Origin: a virus
Virus record (IMG/VR): IMGVR_UViG_3300030451_004287
Span: 62,001 to 126,000 of that record
Strand: one strand, 5' to 3'
Length of the DNA: 64,000 nucleotides
Part shown: one piece after another, positions 6,672 to 42,976 of the stretch
How the letters are laid out: each line of letters opens with the position of its first letter
How positions within the stretch are numbered: the stretch's first letter is position 1
Notes under the pieces: model-generated
Told to the model about the DNA's origin: nothing
Databases searched by the model: none
The model's input: the letters and a program-made list of their open reading frames with translations, nothing else
Program-made: the position numbers and the translations under genes

Positions 6672-7514
6672 ATGTTTATATTCGTAGCTGATTTGTTTGC
6701 TGAAGATTTCTTGGGTGGTGCTGAATTAACTAGTGAAGCTATCTTAAATAAAGCTACAGATAAAGTAATTAAAGTTAGGTCTAGTGATCTTACATTAGAT
6801 TTCGTTAAGTCTCATGAAGACGCTAAATGGATATTTGGTAATTTCTTGGGGATTAATCGTATCATACCAGAATATTTCCTACATAAGAATCTTAACTATT
6901 CTATTATTGAATATGATTATAAATATTGTGATATTAGAATGCCTGAAGCTTGTAAACAACATAGAGGTGAATGTTGTGAAAATAAACCTATTGGTCAATT
7001 AATTAAGAGATTTTTTTTAGGCGCTAAAGATATTTGGTATATGTCTAAGCAGCAAAAAGACTGGTACGAGTCAGTTTTTCCAGAATTAGCAAAAGATAAT
7101 TCTTATGTTTTAAGTTCTATATTTGACGATGCGACTTTAGATAAAATTTGTAAATTAGACACCACCAATAAAGATGATGTATTTTTAATACAAGATCATC
7201 AGCATCCATTAAAAGGAACATCTGTAGCTATCTCTGTAGCAAAAGACAATAATTTAAAGTATCGTAAATTTTCAAATTTATCACATGATCAGTTGCTTGA
7301 ATTATTTGCAAAATCTAAAGGTTTAATTTTTGTTCCAACGCAATTTGATACCTGCCCTAGAGTTACAATAGAAGCTAAAATGCTTGACTGTGCATTAATA
7401 TTAAGTAACAAAGTTCAACACGCTAATGAGGATTGGTTTAACGGATCTAAAGAAGATATAATTAATTACATGAAAGAACGACTAGATTTTTTCTGGACAA
7501 CCGTAAGTAAGTAA
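6672..7514 (+). CDS. GT-B fold glycosyltransferase-like protein
   Basis: The 280-residue protein has the ending of a GT4/GT1-like enzyme: a strand-helix domain with HQHPLKGT near 176-183, then FVPTQFDTCPRVTIEAKML near 221-239. That is the donor-binding EX7E-like region of GT-B enzymes, in reduced form. Cysteine-rich residues about 90-105 (CKQHRGECCENKP) are odd and could bind metal. It opens the glycan cluster and is followed two bases later by a GT2 gene. Donor and acceptor cannot be inferred. Confidence 0.7.
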   Translation: MFIFVADLFAEDFLGGAELTSEAILNKATDKVIKVRSSDLTLDFVKSHEDAKWIFGNFLGINRIIPEYFLHKNLNYSIIEYDYKYCDIRMPEACKQHRGECCENKPIGQLIKRFFLGAKDIWYMSKQQKDWYESVFPELAKDNSYVLSSIFDDATLDKICKLDTTNKDDVFLIQDHQHPLKGTSVAISVAKDNNLKYRKFSNLSHDQLLELFAKSKGLIFVPTQFDTCPRVTIEAKMLDCALILSNKVQHANEDWFNGSKEDIINYMKERLDFFWTTVSK

Positions 7515-7515
7515 T

Positions 7516-8337
7516 ATGAATACTTTTAAGGTGATAGTTCCTGTGTATAATGCTCAGGAATGGATTATTAATAATTTAAATATTCTTCATTCACAAACAC
7601 ACAAACATTTTGAGTGTGTAATTATTGATGATATGTCTACAGATAAAACTGTAGAATATATTGAAAAATATTTATCTATAATTAATGACGATAGATTTAA
7701 ATTAGTTGTTAATACAGAAAAGGCATACGCTCTTAAAAACATATATCAAGGGATTCAACATGGTGGTGTTGCTTTTTGTGATATCATTGTTGTTGTAGAT
7801 GGCGATGATTGGTTAGTAAATGATAGGGTATTAGAATATTTAGATAAGTTTTATACCGAAAAAGAATGTTGGTTGACATACGGTAGTTTTGTTGTTTATC
7901 CTCATGCTTACAAAGGTAGAGAGGCTAGTCCGTATCCTAACGAAATTATTGAAAAGAATCTTTATAGAAAAGATGCGTGGAGAGCATCACACTTAAAAAC
8001 ATTTAAATATCATCTTTGGTCTAAGGTTGAAGAAAAAGATTTACAGGATAAAGATGGTAAGTTTTATGAGTGTGCGTATGACCAAGCTATGATGTTACCT
8101 ATGTTAGAAATGGCTGGACATAGGGCTGAATATATTGACGAAATTCTATATGTTTATAATGTAACTAATCCACAAGCTGTCAATCAAACAAGAGTAAATA
8201 AACAAACAGAAATTATGGTTGAAGTTAGACATAAACAACCTTATTCTAGAATAGATATATATTCTGAAGGTCTTTTAAAAACCAGCAGCAAATCATTTGT
8301 TGACATAGAGGATACAAAACAAGGCAACAGTAAATGA
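7516..8337 (+). CDS. GT2 family glycosyltransferase
   Basis: The 273-residue protein starts with the classical GT-A/GT2 pattern VIVPVYNAQEW (about 6-16), IIDDMSTDKT (about 36-45) and a metal-binding VVVDGDDW (about 92-99). It is an inverting, nucleotide-sugar-dependent transferase, cytoplasmic, without membrane spans. It overlaps the next glycosyltransferase by four bases. Substrate unknown. Confidence 0.85.
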   Translation: MNTFKVIVPVYNAQEWIINNLNILHSQTHKHFECVIIDDMSTDKTVEYIEKYLSIINDDRFKLVVNTEKAYALKNIYQGIQHGGVAFCDIIVVVDGDDWLVNDRVLEYLDKFYTEKECWLTYGSFVVYPHAYKGREASPYPNEIIEKNLYRKDAWRASHLKTFKYHLWSKVEEKDLQDKDGKFYECAYDQAMMLPMLEMAGHRAEYIDEILYVYNVTNPQAVNQTRVNKQTEIMVEVRHKQPYSRIDIYSEGLLKTSSKSFVDIEDTKQGNSK

Positions 8338-9242
8338 AGATAGCATTGGAAAATGTAGATTTAAATAGTAGCAGCGGTCCAAACTCATTCGGGCAAAAAT
8401 TAGTTGCACATTTAAAAGACACTGTTAGTACAGGCGGTACTCATGCTCAATTTACAAACATAAGTGACGCTGATATAGCATTGTGTTTTATTGAATCGAC
8501 GACTCAAATAAACATACCAAGAGTTTTAAGACTAGATGGAATTTATTTTAATTCCGCAATGAATTACGATCAATTAAATTTTAATATAAAACATACATAC
8601 GATCGTTCACAAGGTATTATATTTCAATCTGAATTTAATAAAAAGCTAATAACAAAATACTTTGGAGAGCATAATAATAGTGTTGTGATCCATAATGGTG
8701 CTGACGTAGAAACAATTTCAAAAATACCAGCATATGAACACAACTATAATAATCTTTGGATCTGTGCATCACAATGGAGACCTCATAAAAGACTTGATAA
8801 AAATATAAGATATTTTTTAGAACATAAAGAAGTTGGAGATCATTTAATTGTAGCGGGTAATACTCCTAGTCAAATAGAAGATCCACGAATTACATATGTT
8901 GGTCAATTAAATCAAAATCAATTATATAGTTTGTATAAATCAGCAAAATACTTTTTACATCTAGCTTGGCTAGATCATTGTCCAAATGTTGTTGTAGATG
9001 CTAGAGCTTGTGGTTGTCATATTATATGTACCAATGCTGGTGGTACAGTAGAAATAGCTGGGCCAAATTCTACTATTATAGATGAAGACGAATGGGATTT
9101 TAAACCAGTTGCTTTATACGAACCCCCTAATTTAGACTTTAGTAAAAAAATTGACAATGTCTATAATGTAGATTACAATATGAATATTGTTGCTAGTAAA
9201 TATCTCAATTTTATAAAGGATGTTCATGCCAGTAGTCATTAG
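8334..9242 (+). CDS. GT4-type (GT-B) glycosyltransferase
   Basis: The 302-residue protein is a compact GT-B enzyme. It contains IHNGADVETI near 120-129, ASQWRPHKRLDK near 141-152, and a C-terminal AWLDHCPNVVVDARACGC near 211-228 that supplies the donor-binding acidic residues. This layout is typical of GT4 enzymes adding hexoses to lipid-linked or protein-linked glycans. It overlaps the aminotransferase gene by 17 bases. Confidence 0.8.
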   Translation: MKIALENVDLNSSSGPNSFGQKLVAHLKDTVSTGGTHAQFTNISDADIALCFIESTTQINIPRVLRLDGIYFNSAMNYDQLNFNIKHTYDRSQGIIFQSEFNKKLITKYFGEHNNSVVIHNGADVETISKIPAYEHNYNNLWICASQWRPHKRLDKNIRYFLEHKEVGDHLIVAGNTPSQIEDPRITYVGQLNQNQLYSLYKSAKYFLHLAWLDHCPNVVVDARACGCHIICTNAGGTVEIAGPNSTIIDEDEWDFKPVALYEPPNLDFSKKIDNVYNVDYNMNIVASKYLNFIKDVHASSH

Positions 9243-10044
9243 AAATATCTTTGAAGAATACGTTAAAGACACTTTTAATTTGCAAGATTGCATCGCTGTT
9301 AATAGCGGAACTAGTGCTTTAATAGCAACTTTATGGTCTATGGATTTAAAACCCGACGATGAAGTAATAACAACACCATTTACATTTATTGCTACATCTA
9401 ATGCTATTTTGATAGCTGGTGCTAAACCTGTATTTGTGGATATTGATCCAAATACTTTACTAATTGACGCAAATAAAATTAAGGAAAAAATCAATAGTAA
9501 AACCAAAGCAATTATGCCCGTACATTTATACGGTCGTGTATGTGATATGGACGCTATCAATAGTCTTGCAAAATCAAATAACTTAGCAGTTATTGAAGAT
9601 AGTTCTCAGGCTTTTGGGGCTACATATAAAGACGGATGTAATAATATTAGACAAGCTGGAATGATGAGTGATGCTGGAACTTTTAGTTTTTATAAAACAA
9701 AAAACATATCTACATTTGAAGGAGGTATGATATGTATACCTAAGTATAGTAAGATTGATAGTGTTAAAGTAAGATCTATTTGTGACCAAGGTCAAATTGG
9801 TAGATATAATCATGAGTATATAGGTTTTAATTTTAGATTAGCTGAACCATTATGTCTAATGGCATACGAACAAATGAAATTACATATGACTGGAATAAAA
9901 TCTGAACTAGGTTTAAGAGGACCAAAACAAGGACATTATCCTAAAGTAGTATATGAACAGCCTATTTATAAGAAATTAAATATCACCGGAGACTGCCCAA
10001 TAGCAGAAAATGTTGCCGACAAAATTTCTAAGGGAGAATATTGA
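9226..10044 (+). CDS. DegT/DnrJ/EryC1 family aminotransferase, shortened
   Basis: The start is ATG 9226, correctly spaced behind AAGGA; an in-frame ATG at 9220 is part of the site. The protein (272 residues) has NSGTSALIATL near 26-36, EDSSQAFGA with the pyridine-binding Asp125, and the PLP lysine Lys159 in FSFYKTKN. Family members make amino sugars from keto sugars and are about 360-400 residues long. Here roughly 80-100 residues between the core and the HYP/QPIY end are missing. The PLP site is intact, so activity is possible, but the domain loss is notable. Confidence 0.8.
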   Translation: MPVVIRNIFEEYVKDTFNLQDCIAVNSGTSALIATLWSMDLKPDDEVITTPFTFIATSNAILIAGAKPVFVDIDPNTLLIDANKIKEKINSKTKAIMPVHLYGRVCDMDAINSLAKSNNLAVIEDSSQAFGATYKDGCNNIRQAGMMSDAGTFSFYKTKNISTFEGGMICIPKYSKIDSVKVRSICDQGQIGRYNHEYIGFNFRLAEPLCLMAYEQMKLHMTGIKSELGLRGPKQGHYPKVVYEQPIYKKLNITGDCPIAENVADKISKGEY

Positions 10045-10871
10045 TGCGGTGTGCTGTGATTGGTTTGGGTGTGATGGGTAAAAATCATTATAAGATTTTA
10101 CAAGACATGCCTGCTATAAGTTCTGTTGTTACAGTAGATAGCCAAGAACCAGCAACATACAATAGTGTATCAGATATGCTCGTAGCGGAAGATGATATTG
10201 ATTTTGCTGTTGTGGCAACACCTACAATATCACACAAAGACGTTGCTATAGAATTAATTAAAAATAAAATACATGTATTAATAGAAAAACCAATATCTAA
10301 TGATATAGAAAATTCTAAAAAAATATTATATTTATCAACTCTAAACAATGTTAAAGTTGCAGTAGGCCATATTGAAAGATTTAATCCTGCGATTCAAAAT
10401 CTTCTAAAGCAAATAGAAGGTCAACAGGTAATTAATTGCAACATTATTAGGATTGGTCCGTATCCATCTAGAATTAAAGATGTAGGTGTTAAATTAGATT
10501 TGTCTGTTCATGATATGGATTTGTTGTCTTTTTTAACAAAAGAAAAAATAATAGACTCTTATTGTATATCTTCTAATATTAAAGGAGTCAATGAAGATAC
10601 GGTTAATTTTTTGTGTAAAATGTCTAATGGTTGTACCGGAACTATTTTTAATAGTTGGTTATCGCCACATAAAAAAAGAAACATTGAAATCTTAACAACA
10701 GAACAGTATTATAATGTTGATCTGATGTCGCATAATCTTAAAGGTAATGCTTTACAGTTAGAGTTAGAAGAATTTATTAAATATATTCAAACTGGAAACA
10801 TAGGATTTTTGTGCTCCCCCTCAGAAGCTATCAACACTCTAATTAATATATTATGGACGCAAATAACATAA
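10044..10871 (+). CDS. Gfo/Idh/MocA family sugar oxidoreductase
   Basis: The 275-residue protein has an N-terminal Rossmann motif GLGVMG (7-12), the family EKP motif (about 81-83) and GHIERFNPA, followed by an LSVHDMDLL segment with the probable catalytic His. These NAD(P)-dependent enzymes oxidise or reduce hydroxyls of UDP- or GDP-sugars. Next to a DegT aminotransferase, this pairing commonly makes 3- or 4-amino sugars. Start ATG 10044 shares one base with the previous stop (TGATG). Confidence 0.82.
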   Translation: MRCAVIGLGVMGKNHYKILQDMPAISSVVTVDSQEPATYNSVSDMLVAEDDIDFAVVATPTISHKDVAIELIKNKIHVLIEKPISNDIENSKKILYLSTLNNVKVAVGHIERFNPAIQNLLKQIEGQQVINCNIIRIGPYPSRIKDVGVKLDLSVHDMDLLSFLTKEKIIDSYCISSNIKGVNEDTVNFLCKMSNGCTGTIFNSWLSPHKKRNIEILTTEQYYNVDLMSHNLKGNALQLELEEFIKYIQTGNIGFLCSPSEAINTLINILWTQIT

Positions 10872-11740
10872 ACGCTTGTATTGTTTACATATCATCTAGA
10901 CACAAGTGTATAGACCAATCTTTACAGTCTCTATGGGAAAATTATAATTGTAAATATAATTATCCTGTTTATGTACATTACTTTGATGACATATATGATA
11001 ATAAAGTATCAAATACAGAACAGAATGTAAAATTTATTAGTGTTCCGTATAAAACACCAAGCTTTATACCAGAGAACGAACTGTTTTATAATCGTATGAA
11101 TTTGTGGTATGTAAGATCTAGTTTTAATATACAAAGAAAAGGTTATTTACATATGTGCAATTTTACTAGCAATATGTTTAAATATCCTAATACAGAAATA
11201 CATAATCACGATTTTGTGATGACTGTAGATGATGAGTCAATGTTTGTTAAAGAAATGCCTTACGACCCATTTGCTAAACTAATAGAAAACGATAAAGTTT
11301 TTGCGGCTATGAAGGTTGTAGATCAAACGGTTAAGAAACCACATCAAGGTAATTTTGACACAAGAATTAATCTATGGAATTTTGTCAAAGAATATATATC
11401 GCAAAATAACATAGAGCCTGCATCATCATTTATCTTAAAATTATTATCAGATCCTCAGAGTGATTACAATTTTAATTTTTATCCAGTTGCAGATTCTTAT
11501 GTTATAAACACTAAGCTGTTTGAAAGCCCAGAATGGAAACAGTGGATCAATGCAGTAAATGAGTCTGGTGGAATTTATAAATATCGTTGGGGTGATAATG
11601 ATGTGTATAGTTTATTTTGGTTAATATACAAGGGTGATTGTATCCATGATTTAAAAACAGTAGACGAAGGATATCATTCACAAGGAGCTTTAAGGCATTT
11701 ACAAGACTATGCTCCGGGTGTTAAAAATTTAGGACTATAA
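10853..11740 (+). CDS. GT15-like (KRE2/MNT1-type) glycosyltransferase
   Basis: The 295-residue protein matches the order of landmarks in the GT15 alpha-1,2-mannosyltransferases known mainly from fungi. YLHMCNFTSNMF near 98-109 corresponds to the fungal MCRFYSGFFF. VDDES near 125-129 takes the place of the acidic metal site. GGIYKYRWGD near 239-248 corresponds to GGFFYERWGD, and GYHSQG near 273-278 to GYHHPP. The fungal N-terminal membrane anchor is absent, as expected for a cytoplasmic phage enzyme. GDP-mannose would be the donor, which fits the GDP-mannose-using epimerase in the same cluster. Confidence 0.72.
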   Translation: MDANNINACIVYISSRHKCIDQSLQSLWENYNCKYNYPVYVHYFDDIYDNKVSNTEQNVKFISVPYKTPSFIPENELFYNRMNLWYVRSSFNIQRKGYLHMCNFTSNMFKYPNTEIHNHDFVMTVDDESMFVKEMPYDPFAKLIENDKVFAAMKVVDQTVKKPHQGNFDTRINLWNFVKEYISQNNIEPASSFILKLLSDPQSDYNFNFYPVADSYVINTKLFESPEWKQWINAVNESGGIYKYRWGDNDVYSLFWLIYKGDCIHDLKTVDEGYHSQGALRHLQDYAPGVKNLGL

Positions 11741-11746
11741 ATTATA

Positions 11747-12670
11747 ATGAAAATTCTTTACATAGATCGTGGAAGTGTCACTAATAGTAATTATACATAT
11801 CAATACTATGGTGATTTTTATAGAGAATTACAAAAGAAAGCTGATGTAACATTATACCAAAGTTATATCGAGAGTGTAAACTTACAAAATTATGATTGTG
11901 TAATTTTTGGTCTAGGATTTTTTGCCCAAACTCACAAAGACGCATATACATATTTTGAAAATATTGCTAACGCAAATATTCCTGTAGTTTGTATGATACA
12001 TAAGTTAATGACTTTAGTACCAGAAAAGCTAAATTTTTGTAAGATAAATAATATAGATTTACTATTACATCCACACATAACTTATAAAGATGATGCTAAA
12101 AGTATTGATGGTGAGACTATTAGATTTTGGTTTGGTGCTGATCCGGAAATTTATTATCCAAGAGATATTGCTAAAATATATGACATAGGTTTTAGTGGAA
12201 CTGCTCATGGTGGAGATAAGATACCGGGACCAACCAATGATCTTAGAAATAGAGTACATGGTAAGTTACTAAAAAATAATTACAGTCTATTCTGGAACAT
12301 TGAAAATAGAATACCCGTTGAAGAATACGCTACAAAAATGTGTTCATGTAAAATGTGGGTTTCTACAACAGGCCCGGTATTAGATGTAAGTCCCAGATAT
12401 TTCGAAGTTATGTTATCAAAGACGCTACTTCTGTGTAATAATATGCCATATGAATACGAAGGCGTTTTTAAAGATGGTATTAACTGTGTAACTTTTGCAA
12501 ATGATTTAAGCGATTTAGAAGAAAAGGTTGAGTATTATTTGAACAATGACGAAGAAAGAAAAAAAATTATTGATAATGCTTACGATATGGCTATAAGTAA
12601 TTACACATGGTCTGCAATTACAGATAATGTTTTAAACAAGATAAGAGAAATCAAACATGACAGAGTATAA
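11747..12670 (+). CDS. CgeB-like GT-B glycosyltransferase
   Basis: The 307-residue protein has a Rossmann-like N-terminus (MKILYIDRG) and the CgeB/GT_1_2-type C-terminal half: YDIGFSGTAHGG near 145-156, SPRYFEVMLSKTLLLCNN near 213-230, FKDGINCVTF near 240-249, and a helical LEEKVEYYL end. This group transfers sugars to surface glycans or spore-type polysaccharides in bacteria. It overlaps the next gene by 14 bases. Confidence 0.75.
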   Translation: MKILYIDRGSVTNSNYTYQYYGDFYRELQKKADVTLYQSYIESVNLQNYDCVIFGLGFFAQTHKDAYTYFENIANANIPVVCMIHKLMTLVPEKLNFCKINNIDLLLHPHITYKDDAKSIDGETIRFWFGADPEIYYPRDIAKIYDIGFSGTAHGGDKIPGPTNDLRNRVHGKLLKNNYSLFWNIENRIPVEEYATKMCSCKMWVSTTGPVLDVSPRYFEVMLSKTLLLCNNMPYEYEGVFKDGINCVTFANDLSDLEEKVEYYLNNDEERKKIIDNAYDMAISNYTWSAITDNVLNKIREIKHDRV

Positions 12671-13367
12671 TCCTTGGCCTTTAGGTAGTTTACCTGAAAA
12701 TTTTAGAAGACCTGAAATAGATCAGCTAAAATCAGCTGGATATGATATTGATGATGCTAGAGATGCTGTTACTATTTTTGAAAATAAAATAGCTGAATAT
12801 GCTGGTAGTAAATATGCTGTGGCTGTTGATAGCTGTACTGATGCTTTATTTTTGTCTTTAAAATATATTAACGCAAATGACACTATTACATTCCCATCAA
12901 GAACATATGTTTCTGCACCTATGGCTGCCGTTTTAGCAGGATGCAATATTAAATTTAAAGATTACGCATGGAGTGGACTATACCGATTAGACCCATATCC
13001 TGTCGTAGATAGTGCAGTAAGATTTACAAAAGATATGTATGTTAAAGATACTTTACAGTGTTTATCTTTTCAAATCAAAAAACGACTACCAATCGGTAAG
13101 GGTGGTATGATTTTAACTGACAGTAAAGAAGCAGAGCGATGGTTGAGACTAGCTTCATTTGAGGGTAGAGATTTATCTGTTCCATATGATCAAGATGAAT
13201 TTGCTATGATAGGATGGAATATGTACATGACACCAGAAGATGCTGCTAGAGGAATACTATTATTCGATCAATTATCCACACACAATCCCGACAGTTGCAC
13301 ACATGAAGATTATCATGATTTAACTACAAAGGAAATATTTAAAGATGGCGAATATAAGATACGTTAG
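12657..13367 (+). CDS. DegT-like aminotransferase, truncated form
   Basis: The 236-residue protein has the DegT N-terminal part: FENKIAEYAGSKYAVAVDSCTDAL near 41-64, DSAVRF near 118-123 (pyridine-binding Asp118) and SFQIKKRLPIGKGGMIL near 137-153, where Lys142 aligns with the PLP lysine. It ends well before the family's C-terminal domain, so it is even shorter than the gene at 9226. It may be a reduced enzyme, a partner of another subunit, or inactive. A final HEDYHDL segment resembles the HYP loop region. Confidence 0.7.
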   Translation: MTEYNPWPLGSLPENFRRPEIDQLKSAGYDIDDARDAVTIFENKIAEYAGSKYAVAVDSCTDALFLSLKYINANDTITFPSRTYVSAPMAAVLAGCNIKFKDYAWSGLYRLDPYPVVDSAVRFTKDMYVKDTLQCLSFQIKKRLPIGKGGMILTDSKEAERWLRLASFEGRDLSVPYDQDEFAMIGWNMYMTPEDAARGILLFDQLSTHNPDSCTHEDYHDLTTKEIFKDGEYKIR

Positions 13368-14679
13368 TCACGCTTCTGTATTAATTGAATCTAACAATCA
13401 AACAATTCTTACAGATCCTTGGTATGACAAACCTGCTTTTGGTAGTTGGTTACCAACACCTCCAATGAGTATACATCCCGTTTATATATTAACGTTAGCA
13501 AAAGATAATCCTAATTTTAGTTTAGCTATATCTCATGGTCATGATGATCATATTGATGATCACTTTTTATCTTTGTTTGATAAAAATACTAGAGTGCTAA
13601 TTCCAGAATATAGCTCAAAAGGTTTTTTGTTTAGAATTAAAAATAAAGGTTTTACTAACATTATAGAAGTTCCAACTTCAGGATATTCTTTTAACAATGT
13701 TACTGTCAAGTCTTATATTAATACAGAAATTTCAAGAGATGATGGTATTTTAACATTTGAATTTCCTCATCATTTCATAGTTCATGCTAACGACAACTGG
13801 CAAGAAATCACAGGGTCAAATTTTGAGCAAATGAAAGCAGATGCAGATAGGTTTGCTCCTGATAGAAAACTATTTATGTCTCAATGTAATTTAGCTGATG
13901 GATGGCCAAATATATACAGAGACTATTCAGAAGAAGAAAAGAATGACATTCATGAAAAAAGAGTTAATAATATTATTAAAAATAGCCTAGGTAATGCTAA
14001 TAGTCTTCGAATTAGAAATTTTCTGAACTATGCTGGTCATGCGTCTGCTTTTGTAAAGAATAGACCAGATCTAAAAAGTAAAGTATCGTTTAAGTCCAAC
14101 GAATACATACAAGATATAGTTAGAAAATCAAAGTTTGATGTTAATGTTTTAAATATGATTCCGGGAGATACTTTTAATTTTGAAGGAGTACGCAAATTAT
14201 TCCAGCAAAATTTAGATGAAGAAGAATTAAAACAGCAATCTTTTGCATTTTATGAAGCAACAAATAAACTTGATGAGTGTGATTCTTATAAGAATTATGA
14301 ATCTCTACCTTACGATGAAATGAAAAATCTATTAGATGAATTTGTAAAAGGTTTTGCAGAATTTGTTACTCCTAGAATAGATAGAACACAATTTAATACA
14401 GATATTTTAGGATATAAAGTAGTGTTCAGTTCTACAGGAAATGATACTATATCTAGTAGTGTTGTAGTTGGTGATGAATTTAAAGATAAAACAGTACACT
14501 TTTATGTTCTTAATAGCGTGCTGTCTGCTTTATTAAGAGGAGAAATTAATTGGGAAAATTTATATATTGGATATGGCGCTGAGATAGAAACGACCCCTAA
14601 AGATACGAATGCTCGTGCAGTTATACGATGGATGGCTATGTATGGCTATGTTTATCAAAGGAATATAAATGCAAGATAA
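13345..14679 (+). CDS. MBL-fold metal-dependent protein, CMP-Neu5Ac hydroxylase-like
   Basis: The 444-residue protein has a metallo-beta-lactamase N-terminus with VSHASVLIE (7-15), TDPWY, and the metal motif SHGHDDHID (His64, His66, Asp68, His69). The long C-terminal part, with NYAGHASAFVKN near 228-239, resembles the MBL proteins related to CMP-N-acetylneuraminate monooxygenase and UlaG found in sugar clusters. It probably hydrolyses or oxidises a sugar or sugar phosphate. It lacks an N-terminal Rieske domain. Substrate unknown. Confidence 0.72.
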   Translation: MANIRYVSHASVLIESNNQTILTDPWYDKPAFGSWLPTPPMSIHPVYILTLAKDNPNFSLAISHGHDDHIDDHFLSLFDKNTRVLIPEYSSKGFLFRIKNKGFTNIIEVPTSGYSFNNVTVKSYINTEISRDDGILTFEFPHHFIVHANDNWQEITGSNFEQMKADADRFAPDRKLFMSQCNLADGWPNIYRDYSEEEKNDIHEKRVNNIIKNSLGNANSLRIRNFLNYAGHASAFVKNRPDLKSKVSFKSNEYIQDIVRKSKFDVNVLNMIPGDTFNFEGVRKLFQQNLDEEELKQQSFAFYEATNKLDECDSYKNYESLPYDEMKNLLDEFVKGFAEFVTPRIDRTQFNTDILGYKVVFSSTGNDTISSSVVVGDEFKDKTVHFYVLNSVLSALLRGEINWENLYIGYGAEIETTPKDTNARAVIRWMAMYGYVYQRNINAR

Positions 14680-15217
14680 TATTTTTTTCGATGTAAGTAA
14701 ATTAAAACACGTTGGCAAAAATGTGGTTATAGGTAAGACTGTTAGAATTAGACAGCCAGAAAATGTAACCATAGGTGATAATACTATTATTGATGACTTT
14801 GCTTATATTTCAGCTAAAATAGATATCGGTAAAAACTGCCATATTGCTTCACACTCATCTATTAGTGGCAGTAAAGGTAAATTCACTATGGGCGATTATT
14901 CTACTTTGGCTCATGGGTGTTCTATTCATTGTGCATCTAGTGATTACAGAGAATGCTCGCTAGACCTACCATCTGTTCCAAAAGAACAACAGTTTGGTGG
15001 ATGTGTTGAAGACATTGTTATTGGTGATTTTGTAACATTAGGCACATATTGTTGTGTGTTACCGGGATCTAATATTCCTGATGGTACAGCTTTTGGTGCA
15101 TATACGTTAATTAAAAAAGAAAGTAAACTATTACCATTTCATTTATACGCAGGACATAAATGTAAAGACCTAGGAGAAAGAACAAAACAGGAGTTATTAA
15201 AAAACATAAAACCATGA
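14669..15217 (+). CDS. Left-handed beta-helix acyltransferase (hexapeptide repeat)
   Basis: The 182-residue protein consists of hexapeptide repeats ([LIV]GxxxxI-type: VIGKTVRI, TIGDNTII, DIGKNCHI, TMGDYSTL, VIGDFVTLG) over about 18-145. This forms the trimeric LbH fold of acetyl/acyltransferases. His94 in CSIHCASSD is a candidate catalytic residue. It could O- or N-acetylate an amino sugar made by the neighbouring aminotransferases. An AGGA site precedes the start. Confidence 0.82.
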   Translation: MQDNIFFDVSKLKHVGKNVVIGKTVRIRQPENVTIGDNTIIDDFAYISAKIDIGKNCHIASHSSISGSKGKFTMGDYSTLAHGCSIHCASSDYRECSLDLPSVPKEQQFGGCVEDIVIGDFVTLGTYCCVLPGSNIPDGTAFGAYTLIKKESKLLPFHLYAGHKCKDLGERTKQELLKNIKP

Positions 15218-16149
15218 GAATATTAGTATTAGGTCATACGGGTTTTGTAGGAACAAACCTTATAAATAGATTAATTATTGATAATAAACATCATATTATG
15301 GGGGCTTCAAGATCAGATGGTATTTATAATCATCGTATTAATTTGTTAGATTATGATCATACAAAAAGCTATCTACTACGATATAAGCCAGATGTTATCT
15401 ACAACTTAGCATGTCATGGTGGCAGCATGAAGTATGTAAGAGATTTTGCTGCTGATGTGATTTTTGATAATACTCAAATGGCTTTAAATTTATACAAAGC
15501 TGTTAATAGCATAGATCCTAAAATTAAAATTATACAACCATTTTCTAATTGTTCTTATCCCGGTGATAGCAGTGTACAGCATGAGGACGAATGGTTATCT
15601 GGAGAAGTTCATCCGTCAGTATTTTCTTATGGGAATGCTAAGAGAAGTATATATTATATATCTAAATGTTATAATGATCAATATAATATTAATAGCGTTA
15701 ATTTATTGTTGCCAAATACATATGGTCCGGGAGATTCTATAGACCCAAATCATACACACGCTTTAAATGGTATGATTATTAGAATGATACAAGCAAAGCG
15801 TTCTGGACAAGAAAGGTTTGAAGTCTGGGGTACTGGCAAACCAATTCGAGAATGGGCTTATATAGATGATTTTATAGAGGCTTTAGTACGAGCTATAGAT
15901 TTAAATAACATGGTTTATCCAGTAAATGTGGGGCAAGAAAGGGGATATTCTATTGCTGAATCAGCTCAAATTATTAAAGAACAACTTGGCTATGAAGGTG
16001 AGATATTTTTTGATACTAGTCACCAAGACGGTGATCCCTGTAAAATTTTAAGTAAAGGTAATTTTAATAATCTATTTACAAATTTTAAATGGTATGATCA
16101 TACTCAAGGAATAGCAAATACTATTAGGTATTATGAAAGTAAACTATGA
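15214..16149 (+). CDS. NAD-dependent epimerase/reductase (GDP-L-fucose synthase-like SDR)
   Basis: The 311-residue extended SDR has GHTGFVGTN (7-15), a FSNCSYPG segment corresponding to the catalytic Ser/Cys region, and YGNAKR as the YxxxK pair. WGTGKPIREWAYIDDF is close to the GDP-L-fucose synthase motif WGTGxPxREFLYVDD. It probably epimerises and/or reduces a GDP-hexose. With the GDP-mannose 3,5-epimerase at 21185 it points to GDP-sugar metabolism. No GDP-mannose 4,6-dehydratase is visible in the window. Confidence 0.8.
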   Translation: MRILVLGHTGFVGTNLINRLIIDNKHHIMGASRSDGIYNHRINLLDYDHTKSYLLRYKPDVIYNLACHGGSMKYVRDFAADVIFDNTQMALNLYKAVNSIDPKIKIIQPFSNCSYPGDSSVQHEDEWLSGEVHPSVFSYGNAKRSIYYISKCYNDQYNINSVNLLLPNTYGPGDSIDPNHTHALNGMIIRMIQAKRSGQERFEVWGTGKPIREWAYIDDFIEALVRAIDLNNMVYPVNVGQERGYSIAESAQIIKEQLGYEGEIFFDTSHQDGDPCKILSKGNFNNLFTNFKWYDHTQGIANTIRYYESKL

Positions 16150-18220: not shown

Positions 18221-19023
18221 TGAAAGTAGCAGTAGTAATAACAGGGCAACTAAGAGACTATAAAATTAATTGCCAAAATCATATTGAGCATCTTATAAAA
18301 CCAAACAACGCAGATGTTTTTGTGTATGCTTCTACAAAAAATACTATCCATACCACTAGCTCTGGTAATCAATTAACTCAAAAATATATATTAACTAATG
18401 AGTATTCTAGTGAAGAAATAGTAGATGGCATTAACCAAACTTACGGTTCATATGTAAAAAATATAGTTATAGATACTGAAGAAAAATTACCTGATAATAA
18501 CTTTGGAACTATTGCATATTTTAGACAAAGAATGCAAAATCAAATAGATAATGTAGGCAAGGGTTTCAATATAGCTAAAAAATATTCACTAGACAATAAT
18601 TTTAAATACGATGTTATTGTTAGGTGTCGTCCAGATAATTCTATGTTTCCAAAAGCAGTATCCTTAGATAAGTTTGATTTTCCAGATAATAGGATATATA
18701 GTACTGTATTTATGCCATCTGGACATAGAGATTTATGTTTTTTCGCTGCGGGTAATCCTGTAGCATTTGAAAAATATTGTTCTTTTAAGTATTTGGAAAA
18801 TGTGGATGGTAATAGCACAGATGGTAGTTTAGCTGGTAGCACTGAATATATGTGGGCAGACTATTTACATAGTATAGGTGTTGATACCTTTTTCATAGAA
18901 AACGTATGTAGACCATTTACTGGGTTTGATAAAACTTTACCCGTTACAGATTTCCCTTTTAGAAATAAAAATGAATTATTAATAGATTCAAATGGTAATT
19001 TTGTAAAGCAGGTTGAACCGTGA
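18220..19023 (+). CDS. Glycosyltransferase-like protein (ITGQLRDY type)
   Basis: The 267-residue protein starts at ATG 18220, sharing one base with the previous stop. It opens with AVVITGQLRDY, and in the middle has a KYDVIVRCRPDN motif (about 128-139). That combination is frequent in uncharacterised GT-A-like proteins in LPS and capsule loci. DVFVYAS near 33-39 also fits. It is probably a transferase, but no CAZy family is certain. Confidence 0.65.
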   Translation: MKVAVVITGQLRDYKINCQNHIEHLIKPNNADVFVYASTKNTIHTTSSGNQLTQKYILTNEYSSEEIVDGINQTYGSYVKNIVIDTEEKLPDNNFGTIAYFRQRMQNQIDNVGKGFNIAKKYSLDNNFKYDVIVRCRPDNSMFPKAVSLDKFDFPDNRIYSTVFMPSGHRDLCFFAAGNPVAFEKYCSFKYLENVDGNSTDGSLAGSTEYMWADYLHSIGVDTFFIENVCRPFTGFDKTLPVTDFPFRNKNELLIDSNGNFVKQVEP

Positions 19024-19751
19024 ATGTTAAGGCAGTTTATATACACATTCCCAAAACTGGGGGTACAAGTTTTAAAAAAGTTTTTGAACCTTTTATAAAC
19101 GATCATATTGTAACTGAACAAAGCAAGATTATAAAATATCAAAAAAATTACTATAGAAATGAGTTGTCAGTTATAAATTTTGAGATATCTAATGCTTTAA
19201 GAAATAAAGAAGCATTAGGAGATGAAGTTTGGAAAAATGCTTTTAAGTTTACTCTTGTTAGAAATCCATGGGATAGATATGTGTCAAATTGGAAATGGTT
19301 AACCAGAAAAGAGCGTTTATTTCCCAAGAAAGGATGGCACGCAAGAGGATGGCAAGGCATGGACGGACAAATAACATTTGAAAATTTTGTTAAACAAATA
19401 CAAGCTTGTTATTATGAGTTAACACCTTGGCACTTGTATTGGCATGATAAGTGGCACATAAGAAATCAAATCGAACATATTGTAGATAATAACGACAATA
19501 TTATCGTTGATTATATAGGAAGATTTGAAAATATAGAAAATGAATACAGTTTTATTCGTAAAAAAATTGGATTAGATAATTTAGAACTGCCGCACTTAAA
19601 TCATGATGGTCATTATTCTGGTGAGGAAAAAACACACGATGTTAAGAAAATACATTACTCAAATTATTACAACGATGAATTAATAGATATTGTTTACGAA
19701 AGATGCAAACAAGACATATTAACATTTAACTATGATTTTGAAAGGCAATAG
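19020..19751 (+). CDS. Sulfotransferase
   Basis: The 243-residue protein has both PAPS-binding motifs: PKTGGTS (11-17, 5'-phosphosulfate loop) and RNPWDRYVSNW (81-91, 3'-phosphate site). It transfers sulfate from PAPS to a hydroxyl or amine, here presumably on a sugar. The start is GTG (overlapping the previous stop as GTGA), and no ATG lies nearby in frame. It has no membrane anchor, unlike Golgi enzymes, and is the first of five sulfotransferases in the cluster. Confidence 0.85.
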   Translation: MNVKAVYIHIPKTGGTSFKKVFEPFINDHIVTEQSKIIKYQKNYYRNELSVINFEISNALRNKEALGDEVWKNAFKFTLVRNPWDRYVSNWKWLTRKERLFPKKGWHARGWQGMDGQITFENFVKQIQACYYELTPWHLYWHDKWHIRNQIEHIVDNNDNIIVDYIGRFENIENEYSFIRKKIGLDNLELPHLNHDGHYSGEEKTHDVKKIHYSNYYNDELIDIVYERCKQDILTFNYDFERQ

Positions 19752-21184: not shown

Positions 21185-22171
21185 ATGAAAACAGCATTAG
21201 TTTGTGGAGCCGGTGGATTTATTGGTTCTCATTTAGTTAAACGATTAAAGTCAGAAGGATTCTGGGTTAGAGGCATTGATTTAAAATATCCAGAATTTTC
21301 TGACAGTCACGCTGATGATTTTATTTTAGGCGACTTAAGAGAATTTGATGTAGTAGAAAATTGTTTAACCGATCCTACTCAAAAAACCGGAGGATTTGAT
21401 GAAGTTTATCAGTTAGCTGCTGATATGGGAGGTGCTGGATATATTTTTACAGGGGAAAATGATGCAAATATAATGCACAACTCTGCTCAAATAAATTTAA
21501 ATGTTTGTAGTTTAGCAGTTCGTAAAAAAGTTAAAAGTATTTTTTATAGCAGTAGTGCGTGTATGTACCCATCGTATAATCAGCAAGATACTGAAAATCC
21601 TAAATGTAGCGAAGATTCTGCTTACCCTGCTGATCCAGATAGTGAATATGGATGGGAAAAACTTTTTAGTGAAAGACTATATTTAGCATTTCACAAAAAC
21701 TATAATTTAAATGTACATATCGCTAGATATCATAATATTTTTGGGCCTGAAGGAACATGGGATGGTGGTAGAGAAAAAGCTCCCGCAGCGTTATGTAGAA
21801 AAGTAATTAGAGCAAAAGAAGGTGATACAATCGAAATTTGGGGAACAGGTAAGCAGACTAGATCATTTTTATATATTGATGAATGCGTTGAAGGTACGAC
21901 CAGATTAATGAGATCAAACTTTTCTGGACCGGTAAATATAGGTTCTGAAGAAATGGTTAGTATAAATGGTTTTGCAGAAAGTATAATTAAACTGTCTGGT
22001 AAAAATGTAGATTATAAAAACGTAGATGGACCTGTAGGTGTTAATGGTAGAAATTCTGATAATGCTTTAATTCAAGAAAAACTACATTGGCAACCGTCCA
22101 TGAAACTGTATGATGGTTTAGAAAAAACTTACGCATGGATTCAACAGCAAGTGGAGAAAGAAAATGGCTAG
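21185..22171 (+). CDS. GDP-mannose 3,5-epimerase
   Basis: The 328-residue SDR matches the plant vitamin C enzyme along its length: CGAGGFIGSH (7-16), AADMGGAGYI (78-87), SSACMYPS with catalytic Cys126, EYGWEKL with Tyr155 and Lys159, ARYHNIFGPEGTWDGG (180-195), REKAPAA with Lys198, GTGKQTRSFLYIDECVEG and GRNSDN. All catalytic residues known from Arabidopsis GME have counterparts. It converts GDP-D-mannose to GDP-L-galactose (and GDP-L-gulose). The host must supply GDP-mannose unless other phage genes do. It lies between a GT11-like transferase and another epimerase. Confidence 0.88.
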   Translation: MKTALVCGAGGFIGSHLVKRLKSEGFWVRGIDLKYPEFSDSHADDFILGDLREFDVVENCLTDPTQKTGGFDEVYQLAADMGGAGYIFTGENDANIMHNSAQINLNVCSLAVRKKVKSIFYSSSACMYPSYNQQDTENPKCSEDSAYPADPDSEYGWEKLFSERLYLAFHKNYNLNVHIARYHNIFGPEGTWDGGREKAPAALCRKVIRAKEGDTIEIWGTGKQTRSFLYIDECVEGTTRLMRSNFSGPVNIGSEEMVSINGFAESIIKLSGKNVDYKNVDGPVGVNGRNSDNALIQEKLHWQPSMKLYDGLEKTYAWIQQQVEKENG

Positions 22172-24193: not shown

Positions 24194-25872
24194 GTTTCGA
24201 TATATATGAATTTATAAAAAAAGATTTGAATGACATATCTATAGATGATTTTTATTCAAAGTATGATGTTCCAAAAGAATTTGATCATGAGTTTTACAAT
24301 GATAACTATGAAGGTCTTCAAGATTTTTATCAACCATACTGCAAAGTAAAGGGTTTTTCTGAGAGACAAAGATTATTTTTCCATTGGTGTTTGTATGGTT
24401 CTAAGTTTGGATGGCGAGCATGTCCTAACGTAGAGTTAAAAAAAGATTTTGATCCTGAAATTATTAATGAAAATATATCTGTCGTAGTAGGATGCAAGAA
24501 CAGAGAAGATATGTTAAGTATTAGCGTTATGTCTTGGATTCTAAAACCGCAAATTAAAGAAATCATAATTGTAGACTGGTCTTCATCAAAAAATTTAAAA
24601 TACTTTGAAGATATTGATCCAAAAATTAGAGTTATAAGAGTAGAAGGAGAGCAATTTTATAATGCAAGCAAGCCTATTAATATGGCAATTAAAGAAGCTA
24701 AGTATGAAAAAATATTAAAGATGGATGTTGATTATATCATAAACCCTTACTGTCCATTAGAAAGTCTAGTTGATATACGAGAAGGTGAGTTTGTTGCTGG
24801 AAACTACCGTCAATTTTACATAGATAATGATTTAGGGTTCTTGCGTAACCTTAATGGGGTTATATGTTGTCACAGAAAATTTTTCCTTAAAGCTGGATTG
24901 TATAATGAAGACATTGATAATTATGGTAGAGAAGACTGCGAGATGTTTGAAAAACTAGAAGGCATTGGTGTTAAAAGAAAAGATATTGAGTTTTATCATA
25001 ATCAAGTTCCAATATATCATAACCCTCACAACCATAAAGTTAGAGGTATGAACAGACAAGATAAGGATACTAATAAGACTCTTTTGTACTTTAATAAAAA
25101 ATTCGGTCTGTCTAAATTTGAATTAGTTATTAATCTACATAGAGATCCAGTTCAGGCTAGAACTGAAGAATTAATTGAATGTTTAAGATTAAACTTACAA
25201 AATAAATATATAGATCGTATACATGTATTTCTAGAAAACTACGATAATTTTCCAGAATTCTATAAAATTAAAGAACAAAATGAAGATAAAATAAAAGTTA
25301 TAAACACTGATAATAGAATGTCTTTTAAAAAGATTTTTGCATACACTAACAAAAACATTTTGAATACACAGTGTATCGTAGCAAATAGTGACATTCTTTT
25401 TAACGATGACTTAGCAAAAATAAGAGGACTCAGACCTAGAGACATGATTGCTCTTACAAGACATGAAGGTAAAAATTTACTAAAAAATAGACATAGAAAT
25501 GCTTATTGTTCTCAAGACGCTTGGATATTTAGATCTCCTATGTTAGATGATTTTCCAGAATTAGATGACGATATAATTATAGGAACTTTTTATTCTGATG
25601 TTGTTTTAAACTATTTAATTTCTAAATCTGAACAGTACACAGCTTGGAATATATGTCACGATATAATAATACAACACTGTCATAAAACTACCAAGCACGA
25701 CCATAACACTAAGAGCAGAGAAGAAAATATTAGAAAATATAGATATTTTTGCTGTAAATTTAAAGACGACAATTTTGATAAACACTTAGCCGCTACAACT
25801 TTAGAAGATTATTATTTACACAGACATCCAAATAAATTTTTAAGTAGTTCTGAATATGATAATATGTACTAA
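24190..25872 (+). CDS. Two-domain GT-A glycosyltransferase
   Basis: The 560-residue protein appears bifunctional. Residues about 95-290 form a GT2/GT7-like domain: ISVVVGCKNREDM, IIVDWSSS, KMDVDYI as the metal site, then GREDCEMFEKLEGIG, typical of galactosyl/GalNAc-transferase C-termini. Residues about 310-560 look like a second GT-A domain: LVINLHRD, VANSDILFND near 395-404 as a possible DxD site, and YCSQDAWIF. Such fusions in bacteria polymerise disaccharide repeats. This is the largest enzyme in the cluster and a candidate polymerase. Confidence 0.7.
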   Translation: MSFDIYEFIKKDLNDISIDDFYSKYDVPKEFDHEFYNDNYEGLQDFYQPYCKVKGFSERQRLFFHWCLYGSKFGWRACPNVELKKDFDPEIINENISVVVGCKNREDMLSISVMSWILKPQIKEIIIVDWSSSKNLKYFEDIDPKIRVIRVEGEQFYNASKPINMAIKEAKYEKILKMDVDYIINPYCPLESLVDIREGEFVAGNYRQFYIDNDLGFLRNLNGVICCHRKFFLKAGLYNEDIDNYGREDCEMFEKLEGIGVKRKDIEFYHNQVPIYHNPHNHKVRGMNRQDKDTNKTLLYFNKKFGLSKFELVINLHRDPVQARTEELIECLRLNLQNKYIDRIHVFLENYDNFPEFYKIKEQNEDKIKVINTDNRMSFKKIFAYTNKNILNTQCIVANSDILFNDDLAKIRGLRPRDMIALTRHEGKNLLKNRHRNAYCSQDAWIFRSPMLDDFPELDDDIIIGTFYSDVVLNYLISKSEQYTAWNICHDIIIQHCHKTTKHDHNTKSREENIRKYRYFCCKFKDDNFDKHLAATTLEDYYLHRHPNKFLSSSEYDNMY

Positions 25873-26542
25873 GCATAAAATTATTTATCTTTCTAATTGT
25901 AAATGCGCTAGTAGCACAATCAGAAAATATTTTTGGGAAATAAGAGACCATGAAATTGTAGATGCAATAGAGAAACAAGGTAATGGAAATCCACATATGC
26001 CATACGATAAAGTTGCAAAGTTTCTTACAAAAAATTACGATATAGATATTGATACATTTTTTTTATTTTCTACAATTAGAAATCCTTGGGAAAGGATAGT
26101 AAGTCTTTATAATTATTCTAAACCAGACAAAAACGGAGTGCCTTTTTGGAGTCCAAGATTTGGAATCAAACGCGAAGAAGGTACTAGTTGTAGCTTTGAA
26201 AAGTTTATTTTAAGTGGTTTAGATTACAAACGTAACACCTCTGGATCGTTTGTACATGCGTGTAAAAATGTACGAGATATGTTTGGAAAAGATTATCATA
26301 AATTTAAACTATATAAAAGTGAAGAGTTAGACATAGACAAAATAATGGATGATATAAATGACCCTAGTCTTGAAGCTAAGTTGGGCAGATCAGAATTAAA
26401 AATTGTAGACTCTACGCACTGGCACATGGAAAAAGAAAAAAGAGATAGCGAAAATTACAGAGAATACTATACCGACGAAGTGCGAGATATAATATCAGAT
26501 CATTATAAATTAGATATACAAATAGGAGGATACGAGTTTTGA
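25856..26542 (+). CDS. Sulfotransferase (second)
   Basis: The 228-residue protein has a modified phosphosulfate loop (NCKCASSTIRKYF near 14-26) and a clear 3'-phosphate motif STIRNPWERIVSLY near 72-85. It resembles the Sulfotransfer_2 group that sulfates carbohydrates. A lysine and a Ser/Thr remain in the modified loop, so binding of PAPS is plausible. Start ATG 25856 overlaps the upstream gene by 17 bases. It is the first of three tandem sulfotransferase genes. Confidence 0.75.
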   Translation: MIICTKHKIIYLSNCKCASSTIRKYFWEIRDHEIVDAIEKQGNGNPHMPYDKVAKFLTKNYDIDIDTFFLFSTIRNPWERIVSLYNYSKPDKNGVPFWSPRFGIKREEGTSCSFEKFILSGLDYKRNTSGSFVHACKNVRDMFGKDYHKFKLYKSEELDIDKIMDDINDPSLEAKLGRSELKIVDSTHWHMEKEKRDSENYREYYTDEVRDIISDHYKLDIQIGGYEF

Positions 26543-27102
26543 TAGTATCACACTCTAATAAATTTATTTATCTAAAAAGTTATAAAACAGCCTCTACATC
26601 AGTAGAAATGTTTTTTGAAAGATTCTGTAAAGATTCAGATATTGTAGGGTATAGAGGACCAAATCCTATACCAAAAGATCAAGTTTGGTACAACCATATG
26701 ACTCCATCACAAATAAAAACAAAACTTAATAATAACAATATATGGAATAATTATTTCAAATTTGGTTGTGTAAGAAATCCTTGGGACAGAAAACTGTCTA
26801 GTTATTTCTTTGAAAAAGCTACAGAAACGTTTGAAGAATACTGCATGAATAAAAAATTTAATAATCTTTGTTCTTTTTATAATTTAGATATGGATTATTA
26901 TATACGGTTTGAAAAGTTGCATGAAGATCTACAGGCCGTTTGTGACTTACTCGGTTTACCTTGCGATCTTTCACAGCTGCCTCATGAAAAGAAAACAAAA
27001 CACAAACATTACACAGAATACTACACAGATAAAATGCGTGACAAGATAGCTGAAGACTGCAAGGCTGACATAGACTTTTTTAATTATACGTTTGGTGACT
27101 AA
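26539..27102 (+). CDS. Sulfotransferase (third), TTG start
   Basis: The 187-residue protein begins at TTG, supported by GGAGGA at 26525-26530 and by alignment with its neighbours (MIVSHSNKFIYLKSYKTASTS matches the start of the next gene, MLISFSHKFI). SYKTASTS is the phosphosulfate loop, and CVRNPWDRKLSSY near 74-86 the 3'-phosphate site. It is shorter than the other copies but retains both motifs. Stop and start codons overlap on both sides. Confidence 0.75.
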   Translation: MIVSHSNKFIYLKSYKTASTSVEMFFERFCKDSDIVGYRGPNPIPKDQVWYNHMTPSQIKTKLNNNNIWNNYFKFGCVRNPWDRKLSSYFFEKATETFEEYCMNKKFNNLCSFYNLDMDYYIRFEKLHEDLQAVCDLLGLPCDLSQLPHEKKTKHKHYTEYYTDKMRDKIAEDCKADIDFFNYTFGD

Positions 27103-28389: not shown

Positions 28390-28958
28390 TGACTGATACA
28401 ACAAAAATAAAAAGCATGAGATTTTTCCCGGATTGGGAAAGGACCAACGGAAGTCAAATTCGTGGTTTGATAGAGATGATGTATGATATTAATAAGTTGA
28501 GAAATGGTAAACATTTAGAGTGTGTAGAAATTGGATCTCATACAGGAGAATCAGCTTTAATTATGTCATCATTTCCATTTATTAAACGTTTTCATTGTGT
28601 AGATATACATGAAAATGAAGATATTAAGAAACGACTAAAACAACTGGTAATGTTGGATAGAGTTAAAATAATATTTCAAGACTCTGAAGAATACGCACCT
28701 ACTATACCAGACAACAGTATTGATATGGTATACATAGACGCTAATCATGATTATGATTCTGTTAAAAGAGATTTAAATACTTGGTCAAGTAAAGTAAAAA
28801 AATCAGGATTCATTTGCGGTCATGATTACTCAAAAACTTTTTGGGGTGTAATTCAATCTGTTAACGAGTTGTCAGACCTAAAACAAGCATTAGTTAAAAA
28901 TTATGTAGACGGTAGCTATATGATACAAAAAACATGGGATGTCAAACCTCTATGCTAA
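28389..28958 (+). CDS. Class I SAM-dependent methyltransferase (Methyltransf_24 type)
   Basis: I use ATG 28389, which shares a base with the previous stop (TAATG). An in-frame ATG at 28365 would add eight residues. The protein (189 residues) has CVEIGSHTGESAL (motif I), FHCVDIHEN (motif II, acidic), and MVYIDANHDYDSVKRDL, a signature of the Methyltransf_24 group that O-methylates sugars or small molecules. It probably caps or decorates the glycan. Confidence 0.8.
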   Translation: MTDTTKIKSMRFFPDWERTNGSQIRGLIEMMYDINKLRNGKHLECVEIGSHTGESALIMSSFPFIKRFHCVDIHENEDIKKRLKQLVMLDRVKIIFQDSEEYAPTIPDNSIDMVYIDANHDYDSVKRDLNTWSSKVKKSGFICGHDYSKTFWGVIQSVNELSDLKQALVKNYVDGSYMIQKTWDVKPLC

Positions 28959-29638
28959 TATCCAAAGAATATGGTGTTATTTTTATACACATTCCTAAAA
29001 CTGGTGGAACTACTTTACATCGTGCTTTTCGTGAAGTGTTAAAAGACGACACTAATATCCTGTCAACAGGATCACAAGCTATGCGAAGAATAACGATAAA
29101 TCAACCATCAAAATTTTTAGATTTTTACAATAAGGTACATTTAAAATATAAATATCTTGAAGACAGACAAAACTCACCGATGGAAACTGGTGTATGGTTA
29201 AAGTATTTTGATAGCTATAGAATTTTTACAGCTATGAGAAATCCTTGGAGTTGGTATGTTTCTAATTATTTATTTGATCAAAAACTTCATGCAGCAGATC
29301 CGACATATATAACCCGCCCTTCAACAGTTTTGCCTTTTGACGAGTGGCTTAAAACTAGAGATACAAATCAATTTGATTGGGTAATAGATAGTTATGGAAA
29401 AAATTGCGCAACCATGATAGGTCAAACTGAAACATTACAAGATTCATTTAATCAAATGTGTGATGAAATTGGTGTTCCTAGTATACAATTAGAAAACGTA
29501 AATGTTAGTGAAGAATCTCTTCAAGAAGATGGAACTATAGATCATTCATATTATAGAGATTTTTATACAGATGAAACCAAAGCTATAGTTGCTGAAAAAT
29601 CTAAAAGGGTAATAGAACAGTTTAATTATGAATTTTAA
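28952..29638 (+). CDS. Sulfotransferase (fifth)
   Basis: An upstream in-frame ATG (28934) exists, but ATG 28952 gives a start, MLISKEYG, like that of the other copies and overlaps the previous stop. Motifs are HIPKTGGTTLHRAF near 13-26 and AMRNPWSWYVSNY near 94-106. It closes the glycan cluster and overlaps the dCMP deaminase gene by 11 bases, so sulfation and nucleotide genes share a transcript. Confidence 0.83.
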   Translation: MLISKEYGVIFIHIPKTGGTTLHRAFREVLKDDTNILSTGSQAMRRITINQPSKFLDFYNKVHLKYKYLEDRQNSPMETGVWLKYFDSYRIFTAMRNPWSWYVSNYLFDQKLHAADPTYITRPSTVLPFDEWLKTRDTNQFDWVIDSYGKNCATMIGQTETLQDSFNQMCDEIGVPSIQLENVNVSEESLQEDGTIDHSYYRDFYTDETKAIVAEKSKRVIEQFNYEF

Positions 29639-42973: not shown

Positions 42974-42976
42974 ATT

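What the first reader, a model, noticed from the sequence alone, without database searches (positions are those of the whole stretch)
10853..11740. GT15-like mannosyltransferase of eukaryotic type in a phage
Motifs match KRE2/MNT1-type alpha-1,2-mannosyltransferases, known mainly from fungi. A phage version without a membrane anchor would be a notable transfer and a likely GDP-mannose user in the same cluster as the GDP-mannose epimerase.
Basis: partly seen in the sequence, partly recalled or inferred. Interest (0 to 1): 0.65.

Follow-up and report, generated by a model that had tools for sequence, protein, structure and literature searches.

The report
Divergent GT15-family glycosyltransferase in a phage
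A tailed phage carries a true relative of the yeast cell-wall enzyme Kre2, but it belongs to a large phage branch of that family that has lost several of the residues yeast uses to grip GDP-mannose, so it is probably neither a recent gift from a fungus nor a plain mannosyltransferase.

Summary
The ORF at 10853-11740 is real. It is a significant GT15 (PF01793) member: E=5.8e-18, 65.8 bits against a cut-off of 25. Its confident AlphaFold2 model (pLDDT 91.7) matches Ktr4p, Kre2p and CmsA as its top 11 PDB hits. It has no membrane anchor, and a true GDP-mannose 3,5-epimerase lies in the same cluster. That part of the reading holds.

"Eukaryotic type, transferred" is not supported. GT15 turned up in over 80 viral contigs, tailed-phage where testable, none in INPHARED, and sporadically in archaea and bacteria. 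The window protein belongs to its own strongly supported branch with about 34 other viral contigs and an Omnitrophota gene, apart from the fungal enzymes. Eukaryote sampling was only three fungal sequences.

"GDP-mannose user" is doubtful. The branch keeps the metal Asp, Tyr98, Arg245 and Asp248. It replaces donor-sugar contacts (Kre2p R245 to T/S/H, N327 to D, A362 to N) and Glu329 to Tyr; 47 other phage GT15 proteins largely keep these. A conserved operon often places a 3-amino-sugar cassette (Gfo/Idh plus DegT) just upstream.

Best reading: a soluble GT-A glycosyltransferase in a phage glycan-assembly operon, with a remodelled donor site. Substrate and activity are unproven.

The parts
10853..11740 (+). 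GT15-family (PF01793) GT-A glycosyltransferase, 295 aa, soluble, window-type subfamily
   Evidence: Pfam E=5.8e-18; AF2 pLDDT 91.7; top 11 Foldseek PDB hits all GT15; residue counts
11747..12670 (+). Glycosyltransferase of GT-B/group 1 type (Glyco_trans_1_2), conserved partner of the GT15 gene
   Evidence: Pfam PF13524 E=9e-16; homologue in 33 of 35 loci, adjacent in most
10041..10871 (+). Gfo/Idh/MocA oxidoreductase, nearest model UDP-GlcNAc 3-dehydrogenase (below the curated cut-off)
   Evidence: NF040723 187.6 bits of 450; PDB 7bvj E=1.6e-19
9220..10044 (+). DegT/DnrJ/EryC1-type sugar aminotransferase, short form (274 aa)
   Evidence: PDB perosamine synthetase E=8e-43, WbpE E=1e-35; conserved in 20 loci
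8334..9242 (+). GT4-type glycosyltransferase (Glycos_transf_1)
   Evidence: Pfam E=2e-9; conserved in 24 loci
7516..8337 (+). GT2 glycosyltransferase
   Evidence: Pfam PF00535 E=8e-20; conserved in 23 loci
6672..7514 (+). Conserved operon protein, no Pfam family; possibly a divergent GT (inference)
   Evidence: homologues in 30 loci; no Pfam match
15214..16149 (+). NAD-dependent epimerase/dehydratase nearest to GDP-L-fucose synthase (below the curated cut-off)
   Evidence: NF047922 162.7 bits of 500
21185..22171 (+). GDP-mannose 3,5-epimerase
   Evidence: PDB 2c59 E=3.3e-95

Best explanation
The gene encodes a soluble, cytoplasmic, metal-dependent GT-A glycosyltransferase of the GT15/PF01793 homology group. 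It works as one step of a conserved phage glycan-assembly operon: protein of unknown family, GT2, GT4, DegT aminotransferase, Gfo/Idh oxidoreductase, GT15, group-1 GT. Shown: family, fold, kept metal and sugar/phosphate residues (Asp126, Tyr98, Arg245, Asp248), operon conservation, purifying selection. Inferred: it binds a nucleotide-diphosphate sugar and a divalent metal and transfers the sugar, probably with retention, onto a glycan built with the adjacent GT. Also inferred: the donor is probably not GDP-mannose, since Kre2p residues that touch the mannose (R245, N327, A362) and Glu329 are replaced throughout the subfamily; an amino-sugar made by the adjacent Gfo/Idh plus DegT pair is one candidate. 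The glycan probably ends up on the host surface or on the virion; which one is unknown.
For: PF01793 in all 62 homologues tested; profile hits only GT15 structures significantly; AF2 model pLDDT 91.7 with top 11 PDB hits GT15, E 1.5e-13 to 1.7e-11, next family 4e-6; a window-type-only model still ranks GT15 first; hhalign 99.9% to canonical GT15. Tree: own clade 100/100 with an Omnitrophota gene, fungal enzymes apart. Residues: Asp126, Tyr98, Arg245, Asp248 in 30/30; Kre2p R245, N327 and E329 equivalents kept in 0/30, against R 47/47, N 43/47, E 44/47 in canonical phage GT15. Contacts as named in PMC11077754, PMC4546622, PMC3787745. Operon conservation in about 30 contigs.
Against: No activity data exist. 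The donor change is read from sequence columns; conserved residues elsewhere could rebuild a mannose site. GDP-mannose-related enzymes (GME, Fcl-like) are in the same cluster. The amino-sugar cassette is missing next to the GT15 gene in several loci (L012, L018, L020, L021, L027). The good AF2 model used canonical GT15 sequences in its alignment.
Confidence: 0.6

Rival explanations
1. It is an ordinary GDP-mannose-dependent alpha-mannosyltransferase like Kre2p, adding mannose (or the GME product, GDP-L-galactose or GDP-L-gulose) to a phage-made glycan.
For: GT15 membership; a real GME and an Fcl-like enzyme in the cluster; the O4/O6-binding Asp and catalytic-site Tyr are kept; Asp45 could take over guanine binding in the hhalign register.
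Against: Arg245, Asn327 and Ala362 equivalents are replaced in the 30 members (0, 0 and 0 kept) while canonical phage GT15 largely keep them.
Confidence: 0.25
2. A phage acquired this gene from a eukaryote (fungus or alga) as a recent transfer.
For: GT15 is best known from fungi; it is very rare in prokaryote genomes.
Against: The window clade excludes the three fungal enzymes, is on a long branch, spans at least 30 divergent contigs, and joins a bacterial gene. Related phages carry the separate canonical type (L040). Archaeal and bacterial GT15 genes exist in glycan clusters.
Confidence: 0.05
3. The subfamily is a catalytically inactive GT-A fold protein that acts as a partner or acceptor-binding subunit of the adjacent glycosyltransferase.
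For: Loss of Glu329 and of the donor-sugar Arg and Asn, and an uncertain metal His; near-constant presence of the neighbouring GT.
Against: Asp126, Tyr98, Met101, Arg245 and Asp248 are invariant in all 30 members; linker proteins show partial replacement rather than decay of the site.
Confidence: 0.1

Closest known systems
Kre2p/Mnt1p and Ktr4p of S. cerevisiae, CmsA/Ktr4 of A. fumigatus (CAZy GT15)
   Same: PF01793 family, GT-A fold (TM 0.65-0.68), metal carboxylate, Tyr220, Arg358 and Asp361 equivalents, RWGD motif
   Different: No membrane anchor or stem; 17-19% identity; donor-sugar Arg, Asn and Ala and Glu329 replaced; guanine site uncertain; encoded by a phage in a glycan operon
Canonical-type phage GT15 proteins (L036-L093) and archaeal GT15 (Methanoperedens L096)
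   Same: PF01793, shared core motifs, phage or glycan-cluster setting
   Different: They keep DxD, the donor Arg and Asn, Glu329 and the metal His; separate branches in the tree
Omnitrophota GT15-methyltransferase fusion protein (L094)
   Same: Nearest cellular relative found, 35% identity, same clade 100/100; also lacks Glu329; a homologue of the partner GT lies 4 kb away
   Different: Fused to a methyltransferase domain; keeps the donor Arg and Asn and the metal His
GnnA/GnnB pathway to UDP-GlcNAc3N (for the two upstream genes)
   Same: Gfo/Idh oxidoreductase nearest to UDP-GlcNAc 3-dehydrogenase plus a DegT aminotransferase (pathway in PMC7663294)
   Different: Scores lie below the curated equivalog cut-offs; the aminotransferase ORF is short (274 aa); product not shown

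Membership tests
GT15 / PF01793 | Significant match to the family profile | tested here: met
   65.8 bits, cut-off 25, E=5.8e-18; 62 of 62 homologues match
GT15 / PF01793 | GT-A fold closest to Kre2p/Ktr4p | tested here: met
   AF2 pLDDT 91.7; top 11 PDB hits all GT15, next family seven orders of magnitude weaker in E
GT15 / PF01793 | Metal carboxylate (Kre2p E247) and O4/O6-binding Asp (D361) | tested here: met
   Asp126 and Asp248 in 30/30; Asp in place of Glu as in all other non-fungal members
GT15 / PF01793 | Metal-binding His (Kre2p H388) | tested here: inconclusive
   His275 lies one residue from the aligned column; His in 26/30, absent in four members and in the linkers
GT15 / PF01793 | Guanine-binding Asn-Asp pair (Kre2p N160, D161) | tested here: inconclusive
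   Ungapped: Tyr43-Phe44 in 30/30; hhalign places Asp45 opposite the acid
Fungal Kre2/Mnt1 subfamily | Donor-mannose contacts Arg245, Asn327, Ala362 (Kre2p numbers) | tested here: not met
   Replaced by T/S/H/V/I/C, D (29/30) and N/H/T/I; contacts from PMC11077754
Fungal Kre2/Mnt1 subfamily | Glu329 after the donor Asn (candidate nucleophile in the older literature; own knowledge) | tested here: not met
   Tyr in 28/30, Trp 1, Phe 1; ungapped to RWGD
Fungal Kre2/Mnt1 subfamily | Type II membrane protein with stem | tested here: not met
   Maximum 19-residue hydropathy mean 0.37; catalytic domain starts at residue 8
Fungal Kre2/Mnt1 subfamily | Groups with fungal GT15 in a tree | tested here: not met
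   Separate 100/100 clade; only three fungal sequences available
GT15 / PF01793 | Retaining alpha-mannosyl transfer from GDP-mannose | not testable with these tools
   Needs an enzyme assay

The most novel reading that the evidence does not exclude
A phage-dominated GT15 subfamily has switched donor away from GDP-mannose (candidate: a UDP-2,3-diamino-type sugar made by the adjacent operon genes) and works without the Glu329 position. To my knowledge it would be the first non-mannosyl activity in GT15, and a natural test of how retaining GT-A enzymes work.
Probability: 0.35. Interest if true: 0.65.

Novelty: new variant of a known kind. Interest (0 to 1): 0.5.

Why it matters
GT15 is studied almost only as a fungal cell-wall mannosyltransferase family. 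Finding it across many phage contigs, with none in the 50,697 INPHARED records by tblastn with three queries and no paper on it found in the held library, widens its known range. The natural series Kre2p-like, linker, window-type shows stepwise replacement of donor contacts and of Glu329, which makes donor specificity and the retaining mechanism testable. It also points to unusual amino- and possibly sulfated glycans made by a phage of a probable planctomycete-type host.

Tried and rejected
PHROGs and NCBIfam have no model for this protein. INPHARED tblastn with three GT15 queries: none. The first structure job with seven sequences gave pLDDT 53.6 and was replaced by a 62-sequence alignment. 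I first read the guanine-binding Asp as clearly lost; hhalign allows Asp45 to replace it, so it is marked inconclusive. NCLDV capsid search in 38 records: none, but the tool warned that nothing rang anywhere, so this is weak; terminase hits show tailed phages for 16 of 44 records tested, some through weak ATPase-only matches. Literature searches for GT15 with phage or virus found nothing relevant. Planctomycetota genomes could not be searched for GT15 because no centre genome was reachable. A chance motif match was rejected by the E-values and the fold.

Full report
OBSERVATION. The ORF at 10853-11740 (+) is intact, 295 aa, in a tight same-strand operon. It matches Pfam GT15 (PF01793) with 65.8 bits against a cut-off of 25, E=5.8e-18, and Kre2p in the PDB with E=2.2e-8. 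No hydrophobic anchor is present. The window is part of a 159,659-base virus record with a terminase and a tape-measure protein, so it is a tailed phage.

FAMILY AND FOLD. IMG/VR scans with the protein and the growing alignment found about 35 homologous loci of the window type, linkers included. A scan from one distant hit found 56 loci of a more Kre2p-like, canonical type. Some of these duplicate each other or earlier loci. All 62 aligned proteins match PF01793, and their profile finds only GT15 structures at significant E-values. The AlphaFold2 model built on this alignment is confident and its top 11 Foldseek hits are all GT15. The viral structure library has nothing as close: best TM 0.57. 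A model from seven window-type sequences alone is poor but still ranks GT15 first. Window-type and canonical profiles match at 99.9% probability.

DISTRIBUTION. A pattern-limited scan of 84,980 prokaryote species found seven loci. GT15 rang in 1 of 193, 1 of 247 and 2 of 289 genomes of three phyla, each tally including the seed genome, and in none of 14 control genomes. The two archaeal genes and the Omnitrophota gene lie in glycan gene clusters. INPHARED has none by tblastn. Terminase hits mark many of the GT15 contigs as tailed phages. L047 looks like a cyanophage by its S-layer-type porin and tail genes (inference from the sequence).

TREE. In a maximum-likelihood tree of 60 proteins, the window type (25 rows, 100/99), the linkers (99/85) and the Omnitrophota gene form one group (100/100) on a long branch, apart from the three fungal structures. 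The root is unknown and eukaryote sampling is thin, so a very old exchange with eukaryotes cannot be excluded; a recent fungal-type capture is not supported.

ACTIVE SITE. Papers name the residues: Glu and His bind Mn2+; Asn and Asp bind guanine; Tyr, Arg, Ser, Asn, Asp and Ala hold the mannose (PMC4546622; PMC11077754; PMC3787745). In 30 window-type proteins the metal carboxylate (Asp126), Kre2p Tyr220 (Tyr98), Arg358 (Arg245) and Asp361 (Asp248) are kept in all. Kre2p Arg245 becomes T/S/H/V/I/C, Asn327 becomes D (29), Ala362 becomes N (25) and Glu329 becomes Y (28). In 47 canonical phage proteins the counts kept are R 47, N 43, A 37, E 44. Linkers keep R and N but not E. The Glu329 column is ungapped to RWGD, so it is firm. 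The guanine acid and the metal His are uncertain by one residue.

OPERON. Across 35 loci with the GT15, homologues of the downstream GT occur in 33, of the 6672 protein in 30, of the GT4 in 24, of the GT2 in 23, of the DegT in 20 and of the Gfo/Idh in 13. Divergent Gfo/Idh enzymes sit just upstream in several more (L001, L008, L009, L016). The Gfo/Idh is nearest to UDP-GlcNAc 3-dehydrogenase, below the curated cut-off. This pair resembles GnnA/GnnB (PMC7663294). In L012 a 4,6-dehydratase-like enzyme takes the place; in L018, L020, L021 and L027 a GT does. So an amino-sugar donor is a hypothesis, not a result. GME lies further downstream, as do sulfotransferases.

HOST HINT. Outside the window the genome has PSCyt1-DUF1549-DUF1553, DUF1501 and DUF1559 genes, typical of Planctomycetota and Verrucomicrobiota (own knowledge). 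The DUF1501 protein's best plasmid match is the planctomycete Singulisphaera at 44.7%, and INPHARED has none. Of 40 other GT15 records tested, only L029's and L040's carry DUF1501.

VERDICT. A true but divergent GT15-family enzyme in a phage glycan operon; a new variant of a known kind. Recent fungal transfer is not supported; GDP-mannose use is doubtful; the donor is open.

Noticed in passing
L108:7378-9753, L108:9743-11032 and L110:17446-18432 (same genome, upstream of the window): The phage carries PSCyt1-DUF1549-DUF1553, DUF1501 and DUF1559 (pilin-like) genes, hallmarks of planctomycete-type bacteria. INPHARED has no DUF1501 by tblastn. They hint at the host and are unusual phage cargo.
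   Followed up: partly
window 41117-45454: DNA polymerase III alpha is split into two ORFs (PHP plus NTPase part, and finger plus HHH part) with an exonuclease ORF between them.
   Followed up: no
G000:C1:12695-13948 and 153894-155618 (L115, L116): Two large-terminase-like genes, 72% identical over 667 aa, lie near opposite ends of the virus record: a duplication, or an assembly of two variants.
   Followed up: partly
window 19020-19751, 25856-27102, 28934-29638: Several Sulfotransfer_2 genes sit in and after the glycan cluster, suggesting a sulfated glycan.
   Followed up: no
L040:7418-16570 against L108:14040-18893: By eye, L040 shares neighbouring genes with this phage (macro-domain-like, IMPDH-like, GT4) but carries the canonical GT15 type there, so two GT15 types may circulate in related phages.
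   Followed up: no
window 13345-14679: A metallo-beta-lactamase-fold protein (Lactamase_B_3) sits in the glycan cluster; a relative was seen only in L011.
   Followed up: no
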